Shown piece by piece: positions 1-35,470 of a stretch of DNA of 45,856 bases. Both the position numbers and the translations under genes were made by a program. The DNA is from Thermodesulfovibrio sp. (lineage in GTDB: Bacteria > Nitrospirota > Thermodesulfovibrionia > UBA6902). The stretch covers positions 1 through 45,856 of the forward strand of contig JALSHG010000100.1 of the NCBI GenBank assembly GCA_026982355.1. The letters run 5' to 3'. The number at the start of each line of letters is the position of its first letter. The stretch's first letter is position 1. Under the pieces are notes generated by a model that saw only the letters and a list, made by a program, of their open reading frames with translations, was not told where the DNA came from and made no database searches.

Positions 1-173
1 TTTATAAAGCGATGGGATATCGGAAATATGTCTTTATTGCAGGACGTAACGGAGAGTGAAATTCCAAAGGATGTCGATAAGCCGTGCGGAATACTCTCCA
101 AGGTATCGCGGATAAAGCTTTTCCGCCGGACTCTCCTGCCGGGGGGCGGCATTTTTATGCCACTGTAAGGTTA
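1..173 (+). repeat. Dispersed repeat copy A, long form, cut by the window edge
   Basis: This is the central domain and right end of the long repeat form. It carries the GCGATGGGATA block (10-20), the GTAACGGAGAGTGAAATTCC block, a GGTATCGC block (102-109) and the right end TTTTTATGCCACTGTAAGGTTA (ending 173, quoted in part). GCGAT near 10 can pair with ATCGC at 105-109, as in the other two long copies. The left arm lies outside the window. The element ends 24 bases before the start of the O-antigen-ligase-like gene, so it probably lies in its leader. Confidence 0.8.
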
Positions 174-3897: not shown

Positions 3898-3958
3898 GCA
3901 AACCTTGATTGTTGCATAAGCCGGCAGGGAGAGTCCGCTGTAACACCTTGATAAAGCG

Positions 3959-4200
3959 GGGCGTTTGCAAAAGCCCTCCGTCCGTCACCTGCAGCGGAGA
4001 GAGAGGTCTTAGACATCATCGATGCCGAAAGATTTCTCCCTCCGGTCGAAATGACATATACAGTCGAAATGACATATACAGTCGAAATGACATATACAGT
4101 CGAAATGACATATACAGTCGAAATGACATATACAGTCGAAATGACATATACAGTCGAAATGACATATACAGGCATTTTCATACTTTTGCAGGAGGCTCAG
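3959..4200 (+). repeat. Nested insertion inside repeat copy B
   Basis: The segment interrupts the long repeat between ATAAAGCG and GCGATGGG; GCG is present on both sides (3956-3958 and 4201-4203), compatible with a short target duplication. Near its ends lie inverted TGCAAAAG (3966-3973) and CTTTTGCA (4183-4190). It holds the 18-bp tandem array. No transposase is encoded. Confidence 0.55.
4045..4170 (+). repeat. Seven perfect tandem copies of an 18-bp unit (minisatellite)
   Basis: The unit GTCGAAATGACATATACA repeats seven times without a mismatch (126 bp). As 18 is a multiple of three and the unit has no stop in several frames, it creates spurious repetitive open frames on both strands. There are no spacers, so it is not a CRISPR array. 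Perfect identity suggests recent expansion by slippage. Confidence 0.95.
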
Positions 4201-4394
4201 GCGATGGGATACCGGGAATATGTCTCTGTTGCAGGACGTAACGGATACTGAAATTCCAAAAGATGTGTCGACATGACGTGCGGGATATGTCTTGGATGTA
4301 TCGCAGCTAAAGCTTTTCCGCCGGACTCCCCCGCCCTGCAGACGGTGTTTTTATGGCGCCCTGCAAGGTATGTAGTGTGCAAAGAGAAGGAATT

Positions 4395-8030: not shown

Positions 8031-8079
8031 TACCTTACAGTTGCATAAAATACCGCCTGTGCACGTTTATGCAATATTA
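8031..8079 (-). repeat. Dispersed repeat copy D1, minimal inverted copy
   Basis: TACCTTACAGTTGCATAAAA at 8031 is the inverse of the family's right end, and TTTATGCAATATTAA at 8067-8080 is the inverse of the left end. Only about 20 bases separate the two ends, so the hairpin core is nearly all lost. It abuts the long copy D2. Confidence 0.6.
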
Positions 8080-8297
8080 ACCTTAATGTTGCATAAGCCG
8101 GCTGTGGAGTCCGGCGTAAAACCTTTATAAAGCGATAGGATACTGGAAATATGTCCCTGTTGCAGGACGTAACGGAGAGTGAAATTGCAAAAGATGGCAA
8201 TATGCCGTGCGGGATATGTCCTGAAGGTATCGCAGATAAAGCTTTTCCGCCGGACTCCACAGCCCGCAGGCGGTGTTTTTATGCCGCTGTTAAGGTT
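8078..8297 (+). repeat. Dispersed repeat copy D2, complete long form (reference copy)
   Basis: This complete 220-bp copy runs from AACCTTAATGTTGCATAAG to CTGTTAAGGTT. A 17-bp perfect arm pair (8100-8116 with 8248-8264) brackets the centre, and an inner GCGATA (8132-8137) pairs with TATCGC (8228-8233). The apical part holds the conserved GCAGGACGTAACGGAGAGTG block. It fills the gap between two convergent genes, ending 3 bases before the stop of the response regulator gene, so it may also act as a terminator. Confidence 0.85.
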
Positions 8298-8300
8298 GAT

Positions 8301-14718: not shown

Positions 14719-14810
14719 TACCTTAATGCTGCATAAGCGGCAGGAGAGTCCGCCCGTAAAACTTCCGGACTTTTCCTGCCCGCGGGCGGTGTTTTTATGC
14801 CGCTGCAGGA
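14719..14810 (+). repeat. Dispersed repeat copy E, short form
   Basis: It runs from TACCTTAATGCTGCATAAG to TTTATGCCGCTGCAGGA. The central domain is missing: the left arm (GGCAGGAGAGTCCG) reaches CCGTAAAACTT and then directly the right arm (CCGGACTTTTCCTGCC). It lies between divergent xerC and the antiporter gene. Confidence 0.8.
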
Positions 14811-19372: not shown

Positions 19373-19417
19373 TAAATATATCTTACTTTCCGGCTTTTTT
19401 TCAATCTTGTGATAGCT

Positions 19418-19503
19418 TGCAGCGGCATGAAAACACCGCCCGCGGACAGGGGAGTCCGGAGGTTTTACGGAGGGACTCCCCTGTCTGCTTGTGCAACTGT
19501 TTA
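19418..19503 (-). repeat. Dispersed repeat copy F, short form, inverted
   Basis: A 16-bp stem with a single wobble (19442-19457 with 19473-19488) encloses a 15-base loop, flanked by AGCGGCATGAAAACACCGCC and CTTGTGCAACTGTTTA, the inverted family ends. The stem sequence differs from copy D2 while still pairing. The rest of the gap up to 19679 is AT-rich with no gene seen. Confidence 0.8.
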
Positions 19504-28649: not shown

Positions 28650-28713
28650 TTCCTTAATGTTGCATAAACGTGCATGGGAGTCTGCCGGCTGGATGTTATG
28701 CCGCTGTAAGGTA
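28650..28713 (+). repeat. Dispersed repeat copy H2, short form
   Basis: TTCCTTAATGTTGCATAAAC to TTATGCCGCTGTAAGGTA; the arm reads GTGCATGGGAGTCTGCCGG, and the matching right arm is mostly lost. It lies in the 195-base gap between the GT5 gene and the HD-GYP gene; the rest of the gap shows no feature. Confidence 0.7.
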
Positions 28714-29690: not shown

Positions 29691-29816
29691 CTTGCCCCTG
29701 TATCGTTATTTCCCCCCGACATGGGGGAGCTTCCGTATGCATCAATTTCCGGGAATTAAACACCCTCTCTTTTTAGATTACGTATCGGACGGCATGATTG
29801 ATTTCTTGAACAGACC

Positions 29817-29863
29817 GTAATGGGGCATAAGCCGGCGGGCGGTGTTTTTATGCCGCTGTAAGG
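29817..29863 (+). repeat. Dispersed repeat copy I, minimal copy
   Basis: GTAATGGGGCATAAGCCGGC joins directly to GGGCGGTGTTTTTATGCCGC and TGTAAGGC; the hairpin arms are nearly deleted. It lies between the two response-regulator genes. Confidence 0.6.
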
Positions 29864-30303: not shown

Positions 30304-30318
30304 ATTCAAATTCCACCC

Positions 30319-30404
30319 TGCAGTTGCATCAAACATCGCCCGCGGGCGGGAGATTACGGGGCTTTTACGGCGGCCTCTCCCGCCGGCTTATGCAACATTA
30401 AGGT
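30319..30404 (-). repeat. Dispersed repeat copy J, short form, inverted
   Basis: It opens with GTTGCATCAAACATCGCCCG and closes CGGCTTATGCAACATTAAGG. GGCGGGAG and CTCTCCCGCC pair as the inverted stem. It lies 108 bases before apgM and divergent from the receiver gene. Confidence 0.78.
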
Positions 30405-31769: not shown

Positions 31770-31789
31770 CCTCCGATTTTAAGCGGAGG
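31770..31789. repeat. Small inverted repeat between apgM and lysC
   Basis: CCTCCG and CGGAGG flank the 8-base loop ATTTTAAG (31770-31775 with 31784-31789). No T-run follows, so it is not called a terminator. It precedes repeat copy K. Confidence 0.35.
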
Positions 31790-31793
31790 GAAG

Positions 31794-31882
31794 AGTTGTA
31801 TAAACGTGCAGAGGAGTCTGCCGGAAAACCTGCCGCACACTCCCCTGCCCGCAGGCGGTGGTTTTATGCAACCGCAAGGTAA
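31794..31882 (+). repeat. Dispersed repeat copy K, short form
   Basis: GAGTTGTATAAACGTGCAGA to TTTATGCAACCGCAAGGTAA. The left arm GCAGAGGAGTCTGCCGG and right arm CACTCCCCTGCCCGC are partly mismatched. The lysC start (GTG 31906) lies 24 bases beyond it. Confidence 0.7.
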
Positions 31883-33203: not shown

Positions 33204-33284
33204 ATCCTTAATGTTGCATAAGCGGGCGGAGTTTCCCCCGCGGACTCTCCTGCCCGCAGGCGGTGTTTTTATGCAGCGGAAAGG
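33204..33284 (+). repeat. Dispersed repeat copy L, short form
   Basis: ATCCTTAATGTTGCATAAGC to TTTTTATGCAGCGGAAAGGC. The arm pair is GCGGGCGGAGTTTC against GGACTCTCCTGCCCGC, so pairing is imperfect. GGAAAGG at its right edge is the only ribosome-like site before cimA (ATG 33297). Confidence 0.75.
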
Positions 33285-35350: not shown

Positions 35351-35381
35351 AGGGTTCAGGCGTCCGGGGTTCATTTTATAA

Positions 35382-35470
35382 TCTGTGGCATAAGCCGGCA
35401 GGAGAGTCCAGCCGCAAAACCTCCGGACTCTCCCGCCCGCTGGCGGTGTTTTCATGCCGCTGTAAGGTTA
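35382..35470 (+). repeat. Dispersed repeat copy N, short form
   Basis: GTGGCATAAGCCGGCAGGAG to TTTTCATGCCGCTGTAAGGT. GGCAGGAGAGTCC pairs closely with GGACTCTCCCGCC, with one mismatch. It ends 45 bases before the EF-G-like start. Confidence 0.78.

What the first reader, a model, noticed from the sequence alone, without database searches (positions are those of the whole stretch)
8100..8264. Stem arms change in step between copies, suggesting selected structure
Seen: in D2 the arms GGCTGTGGAGTCCGGCG and CGCCGGACTCCACAGCC are a perfect 17-bp pair, 131 bases apart. In F the arms are GCGGACAGGGGAGTCC and GGACTCCCCTGTCTGC, again pairing with one wobble. The sequence changed (CTGTGGAG vs ACAGGGGAG), yet pairing held. 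In all three long copies the inner GCGAT pairs with ATCGC (10/105, 4201/4300, 8132/8228). Inference: the element forms a conserved RNA or cruciform, or its arms convert one another.
Basis: partly seen in the sequence, partly recalled or inferred. Interest (0 to 1): 0.66.

Follow-up and report, generated by a model that had tools for sequence, protein, structure and literature searches.

The report
Hairpin mobile element with matching arms
The repeat is a short "hitch-hiking" transposon (a MITE) present in hundreds of copies in one genus of Nitrospirota-like bacteria, apparently moved by an IS1380-type transposase; its two hairpin arms do change in step, but this looks like a property of the copies that keep jumping rather than of a working RNA in each resident copy.

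Summary
In detail: the 17-bp arms (8100-8116/8248-8264) are perfectly complementary, and across 79 long copies from three species the arms covary beyond shuffled and tree-based nulls (95 doubly changed cells vs 31 shuffled; 20 coincident Watson-Crick changes vs 3.6 simulated, maximum 10). One pair (alignment columns 36/186) does not covary.

The thing itself is a MITE. Ends are CCTTAATGTTGCATAA / CCTTACAGTGGCATAA, with a 4-bp target duplication (TTAA/TAAA). The genome holds 531 exact end motifs (control 1), and two congeners hold hundreds. A 1.53-kb IS1380 element with the same ends and TTAA duplication is its likely transposase source. Empty sites in sister species show insertion.

Mechanism: pairing is kept on internal branches (net +1.9 pairs in 46 substitutions) and lost on terminal ones (-64 in 126). 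Hairpins are matched in lineages that move and decay after landing. Many "in-step" changes also carry the outer ends, so modular exchange contributes. G-U wobble is not favoured, no Rfam family matches, and there is no convergent-gene bias, so a selected RNA in each copy is unsupported. Selection versus template-switch copying of arms is unresolved.

New in passing: a 117:11 orientation bias relative to flanking tandem genes.

The parts
8081..8295 (+). Long (214-bp class) IS1380-type MITE, the copy asked about; one extra T in its right end
   Evidence: Ends, size class and family alignment; 82 matches in own genome
8077..8080 (.). Left copy of the 4-bp target-site duplication, TTAA; right copy TTGA at 8296-8299 (one mismatch)
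   Evidence: Sequence; family 4-bp duplication
8081..8096 (+). L-type terminal inverted repeat CCTTAATGTTGCATAA
8100..8116 (+). Left hairpin arm GGCTGTGGAGTCCGGCG
8117..8247 (+). Core between the arms, with inner helix (TAAAACCTTTATAAAGCGAT / ATCGCAGATAAAGCTTTT)
8248..8264 (+). Right hairpin arm CGCCGGACTCCACAGCC
8279..8295 (+). R-type terminal inverted repeat (reads CCTTAACAGCGGCATAA on the - strand)
8033..8080 (-). Short arm-less member of the same family abutting the long copy (R-type end at 8033, degraded L-type end on the right); right boundary approximate
1..170 (+). Long copy cut by the contig start (left end and left arm missing)
3904..4366 (+). Long copy interrupted by a nested repeat element that carries an 18-bp tandem array (about 4045-4170)
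   Evidence: the same nested insert in copies L051:17086 and L067:5791
19416..19503 (-). 89-bp class copy F, arms GACAGGGGAGTCC / GGACTCCCCTGTC with a short loop, just upstream of the likely true start of a GDP-mannose 4,6-dehydratase gene
14721..14809 (+). 89-bp class copy
28652..28711 (+). 60-bp class copy (one arm only)
29815..29863 (+). 49-bp class copy (no arms)
30316..30403 (-). 88-bp class copy
31789..31879 (+). 89-bp class copy with degraded left end (left boundary approximate)
33206..33284 (+). 79-bp copy
35379..35467 (+). 89-bp class copy with degraded left end

Best explanation
The element is a non-autonomous MITE mobilised in trans by an IS1380-family transposase. Shown: ends shared with a full IS1380 element in the same genome, a 4-bp TTAA-type target duplication, hundreds of copies, insertion polymorphism between sister species, and a fixed L-end/R-end asymmetry. 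The long form carries two arms that fold into a hairpin. The arms change in step because the copies that go on to transpose keep matched arms: pairing is preserved along internal branches of the family tree and lost along terminal ones. Part of the in-step pattern arises because ends with their arms are exchanged between copies as modules around a common core. After landing, copies decay, and in some sites the hairpin appears to have been deleted in place (giving 49-66-bp remnants). Inferred: the pressure acts on the DNA or transcript hairpin of mobile copies (matched arms needed or tolerated for mobility) and not on an RNA function of each resident copy.
For: MITE: 531 exact end motifs vs 1 reversed control in 2.62 Mb; discrete size classes and 4-bp TSD (50/132 exact at 4 bp, 0 at 5-6 bp; 77 vs 19.9 expected from shuffling); L/R end pairing in 193 of 207 elements. 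Autonomous partner: IS1380 transposase on contig C48 (PF13701 149.6 bits; NF033539 234 bits over a cut-off of 180), flanked by TTAA|CCTTACAGTGGCATAA...TGCCACATTAAGG|TTAA. Genus-restricted: 531, 399 and 261 motifs in three congeners against 0-7 in 34 other genomes of the family. Empty sites between species. Covariation. Internal vs terminal branches: Fisher p = 8e-5 on the core tree and 0.02 on the all-column tree; arm mismatches rise with core divergence (rho 0.45, p = 1.6e-4, own-genome copies). Module exchange: branches with coincident arm changes carry 5.3 right-flank changes vs 1.7 (other arm-changing branches) and 0.8 (no arm change). Same-site pair: a 127-bp copy in G012 vs a 45-bp remnant in G000.
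Against: Transposition by this IS1380 enzyme is inferred from ends and target site only, and the MITE interior does not resemble the IS. Parsimony on a recombining family is rough; with a tree from all columns the internal-branch effect weakens (net -0.21 per substitution, p = 0.02). Arm-less classes with intact TSDs exist, so arms may not be needed to move. The tests cannot separate selection from DNA-level copying of one arm onto the other. Only about half of the genome was sampled for alignments, and the genome is a draft in which some mosaic copies may be assembly chimeras.
Confidence: 0.6

Rival explanations
1. Template switching (quasipalindrome correction): during replication the hairpin lets one arm be copied from the other, so arms stay matched by mutation and not by selection.
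For: Coincident changes often involve several bases at once; single-arm changes that restore pairing are frequent (44 events); a few elements have two ends of one type, e.g. L064:17114, L058:16848, L126:7950. Template switching is documented as a source of multi-base compensatory change in hairpins (PMC8794818).
Against: Mismatches near the covarying block persist: 44/178 C-C in 76/79 copies, 39/183 T-C in 54, 36/186 unpaired in 44. Same-type ends are only 6 of 207. Arms are 131 bp apart in the long class, a long jump for template switching.
Confidence: 0.3
2. No maintenance at all: matched arms arise once per founder, and subfamily descent plus exchange of ends between copies produces the apparent covariation.
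For: Much of the signal is subfamily structure: own-arm match 5.17 of 6 vs 4.8 with a nearest relative's arm and 4.17 with random. Coincident branches are enriched for exchanged right flanks.
Against: Coincident Watson-Crick changes exceed a tree-based null on both trees (20 vs 3.6 and 11 vs 2.3). The founder branch of the CTGTGG subfamily changed two pairs with one flank change and no core change. Internal branches do not lose pairing on the core tree.
Confidence: 0.25
3. A functional RNA (regulatory hairpin, terminator or processing site) selected in each copy.
For: Stable fold. Strong orientation bias relative to flanking genes implies a transcript-level or gene-level effect. On the minus strand the A-C mismatches would read as G-U (41 vs 21 cells).
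Against: Resident copies lose pairing. No wobble excess at event level (21 GT vs 30 AC), and none on the transcribed orientation. No Rfam match. No excess between convergent genes (21 vs 25 expected). No terminator-like site at this copy. Orientation bias is equally strong in short and arm-bearing classes (28:3, 42:4, 41:4).
Confidence: 0.12

Closest known systems
Bacterial MITEs (e.g. TIMEs of Pseudomonas, PMC4133298)
   Same: Short, non-coding, terminal inverted repeats shared with an autonomous element, short target duplication, many copies, intergenic
   Different: Ends and TTAA-type target point to IS1380, not Tn3; hairpin arms covary; strong orientation bias relative to genes
IS1380 family insertion sequences (ISEcp1-type; distant relatives of piggyBac, from own knowledge)
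   Same: Transposase model NF033539 and PF13701; CC-starting ends; 4-bp target duplication here
   Different: The MITE carries no transposase and its interior is unrelated to the IS found
BOX, RUP, SPRITE and ERIC repeats (PMC3049150)
   Same: Small dispersed intergenic hairpin repeats in operons; can abut or supply stop codons; orientation-dependent effects reported for ERIC and boxB
   Different: Unrelated ends and sequence; different inferred transposase
REPINs / REP sequences (PMC3116915)
   Same: High-copy extragenic palindromes in inverted pairs
   Different: Longer, with classical TIRs and target duplications; REP-type transposase not searched for here

Membership tests
MITE | Terminal inverted repeats on short (<600 bp) elements | tested here: met
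MITE | Target-site duplication of fixed length | tested here: met
   4 bp; 77 of 207 exact vs 19.9 expected from shuffling; none at 5-6 bp
MITE | High copy number and insertion polymorphism with empty sites in relatives | tested here: met
MITE | No transposase inside | tested here: met
   Core reading frame has no Pfam match and no codon periodicity (p = 0.33)
MITE | Ends shared with an autonomous element in the genome | tested here: met
   L071:159-1689
IS1380-mobilised element | Candidate source encodes an IS1380 transposase | tested here: met
   NF033539 234.2 bits, cut-off 180; PF13701
IS1380-mobilised element | Transposase actually moves the element | not testable with these tools
   Needs a transposition assay
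Known structured RNA (Rfam) | Match above gathering score | tested here: not met
   No match in the window
Selected RNA structure | Covariation beyond phylogeny | tested here: met
   but module exchange contributes
Selected RNA structure | Tolerance of G-U on the transcribed strand | tested here: not met
   GT 21 vs AC 41 cells; 21 vs 30 events
REP/REPIN | REP-associated tyrosine transposase and tagged palindrome | not tested
   Not searched

The most novel reading that the evidence does not exclude
A mobile DNA element in which hairpin pairing itself, not arm sequence, is under selection for mobility or tolerance: arms diverge freely but in step in the moving lineages of three species and relax in resident copies, alongside a strong orientation rule relative to host genes.
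Probability: 0.33. Interest if true: 0.65.

Novelty: new member of a known kind. Interest (0 to 1): 0.5.

Why it matters
It shows that covariation in a repeat family, usually taken as proof of a functional RNA, can come from a mobile hairpin whose resident copies are not maintained. The family (hundreds of copies, three species, many empty sites) is a good natural test bed to separate selection from template-switch copying in hairpin evolution. No IS1380-linked MITE family was found in the held literature, and the orientation rule points to an effect of such inserts on operon expression that can be tested directly.

Tried and rejected
Rfam search (nothing). Core pattern in GTDB contigs and in viral contigs (no matches; own and near genomes may be left out there). 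Terminator hypothesis: no convergent-gene excess and no terminator-like site. Coding core: an open frame exists, but no codon periodicity and no Pfam hit. Local hairpins within each arm: nearly perfect in G012 but not conserved in G000 or G013, so arm-to-arm pairing is the conserved one. One 'element inside a gene' (copy F) turned out to be an over-extended ORF: the dehydratase domain starts downstream of it. The 89-bp class alone gives only weak covariation.

Full report
OBSERVATION. The sequence reported is there. The arms at 8100-8116 and 8248-8264 are a perfect 17-bp inverted repeat separated by 131 bases; the F arms at 19442-19457 and 19473-19488 pair with one wobble. The quoted inner GCGAT/ATCGC motifs are present, with two of six coordinates off by one. 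The fold of 8076-8297 is far more stable than shuffled sequence on both strands (z -7.6 and -8.3).

WHAT IT IS. A search of the window's own genome (2.62 Mb, 119 contigs) gave 82 matches to this 176-bp stretch, with at least 40 near-full copies at 87-100% identity. Aligning the copies shows sharp ends: CCTTAATGTTGCATAA on the left (L end) and, on the other strand, CCTTACAGTGGCATAA on the right (R end). The end motif CCTTANNGNNGCATAA occurs 531 times in the genome against 1 for the reversed control. In sampled stretches, paired ends define elements of about 49, 57-66, 88-90, 213-215 and about 350 bp. They are flanked by a 4-bp duplication: 50 of 132 exact at 4 bp, 5 at 3 bp, none at 5 or 6 bp; in the larger sample 77 of 207 against 19.9 expected from shuffled flanks. 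The target is mostly TTAA or TAAA in the element's orientation. The elements make up about 2.1% of the sampled genome. 193 of 207 have one L and one R end.

SOURCE OF MOBILITY. The CC-starting ends and TTAA target suggested IS1380. The genome encodes an IS1380-family transposase on contig C48 (NF033539 at 234 bits, cut-off 180). It lies in a 1531-bp element with ends CCTTACAGTGGCATAA and CCTTAATGTGGCA and TTAA on both sides (L071:155-1693). The two ends of this IS match the R and L ends of the MITE respectively. That this enzyme moves the MITE is inferred, not shown.

DISTRIBUTION. Two congeners carry 399 and 261 end motifs; 34 other genomes of the same family carry 0 to 7. A window protein has 99% identical relatives in Nitrospirae- and Deferribacteres-labelled metagenome genomes, and most relatives are labelled Nitrospirae or Thermodesulfovibrionia. 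Empty sites in sister species at 74-97% flank identity show insertion, for example L124:6931-7175 (TTTT duplicated) against a single TTTT in L086.

DO THE ARMS COVARY? Yes. On 79 long copies from three species (alignment A1) the 17 pairs form in 90% of cells, with 95 cells changed on both sides against 31 in shuffles (0/500) and 6-27 in slid controls. A tree-based null gives the same answer: Watson-Crick cells 1186 vs 886 (sd 56), coincident Watson-Crick changes 20 vs 3.6 (maximum 10) on the core tree and 11 vs 2.3 (maximum 7) on the all-column tree. Six pairs carry the signal (columns 24-27, 32, 34 with 197-194, 190, 188). Pair 36/186 does not covary. Across species the arms differ (GGCTGTGGAGTCC..., GGCAGAGGAGTCTGCC..., GGCTGGAGAGCCC...) and pairing is largely kept, least in G013.

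WHY DO THEY COVARY? Four lines bear on this. First, on the core tree pairing is neutral on internal branches (+1.9 net pairs in 45.6 substitutions) but lost on terminal branches (-63.7 in 126.4), p = 8e-5; with the all-column tree p = 0.02. Mismatches also rise with divergence. So pairing belongs to the lineages that kept moving, and resident copies relax. Second, branches with coincident arm changes carry many more outer-flank changes than other branches, so arms often change as matched modules exchanged around the same core; the CTGTGG founder branch is a clean exception. Third, no wobble preference is seen on the + strand, which argues against an RNA of that strand; the opposite strand is not excluded. 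Fourth, mismatches close to the covarying block persist (44/178, 36/186, 39/183), which speaks against wholesale copying of one arm onto the other, although template switching is a documented route to such changes (PMC8794818). I rank selection or tolerance acting on mobile copies above template switching, without being able to separate them.

DECAY IN PLACE. At one orthologous site G012 holds a 127-bp copy and G000 a 45-bp remnant. The 49-bp class lacks the hairpin, with the junction at short direct repeats flanking it (sequence); this fits deletion across the hairpin and is an inference.

GENE CONTEXT. With a simple codon-score gene caller, only 6 of 207 elements fall in genes, and at least one copy seemingly inside an ORF (F, in the window) is explained by an over-extended ORF. 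Gap types are used in proportion to their length, with no convergent excess. Unexpectedly, in tandem gaps 117 elements run L-to-R in the direction of transcription and 11 the other way; G012 gives 12:1 and G013 11:0. The bias is strongest within 60 bp of the downstream start (74:1) and weak when both genes are over 100 bp away (10:5). It is the same in elements with intact and broken target duplications (41:4, 70:7). The upstream stop codon often lies in the target duplication or in the L end. This looks like a gene-proximity effect, set at or soon after insertion; it holds in arm-less classes too, so it is separate from the hairpin question.

LIMITS. The genome is a draft; about 49% was sampled; gene calls are home-made; parsimony is rough for a recombining family; some mosaic copies could be assembly chimeras.

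Noticed in passing
all loci of G000, G012, G013: Strong orientation bias of the MITEs relative to flanking tandem genes (117:11, 12:1, 11:0), concentrated close to start and stop codons; cause unknown.
   Followed up: partly
window 3975-4199; L051:17086-17435; L067:5791-6141: A second, unrelated short repeat element (ends like GAGCCTCTTGCAAAAG) nested inside long MITE copies; in the window it carries an 18-bp tandem array (TCGAAATGACATATACAG) of about 7 copies.
   Followed up: no
L121, L122, L125, L127 (G012): In G012 several elements keep the ends and arms but have a completely different core (C/T-rich, CCCCCTCCC... and GAACTCTGAACTCTG), i.e. core replacement inside the same hairpin frame.
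   Followed up: no
core of the long class, e.g. window 8127-8294: An open frame (KRWDIGNMSLLQDVTESEIPKDVDMPCGIFPEGIADKAF...) runs through the consensus core; no Pfam match, no significant codon periodicity.
   Followed up: yes
A1 columns 21-38 and 184-200, G012 rows: In G012 each arm is itself close to a perfect 6-bp local palindrome (GGCAGA-GGAG-TCTGCC), an alternative fold to arm-arm pairing.
   Followed up: partly
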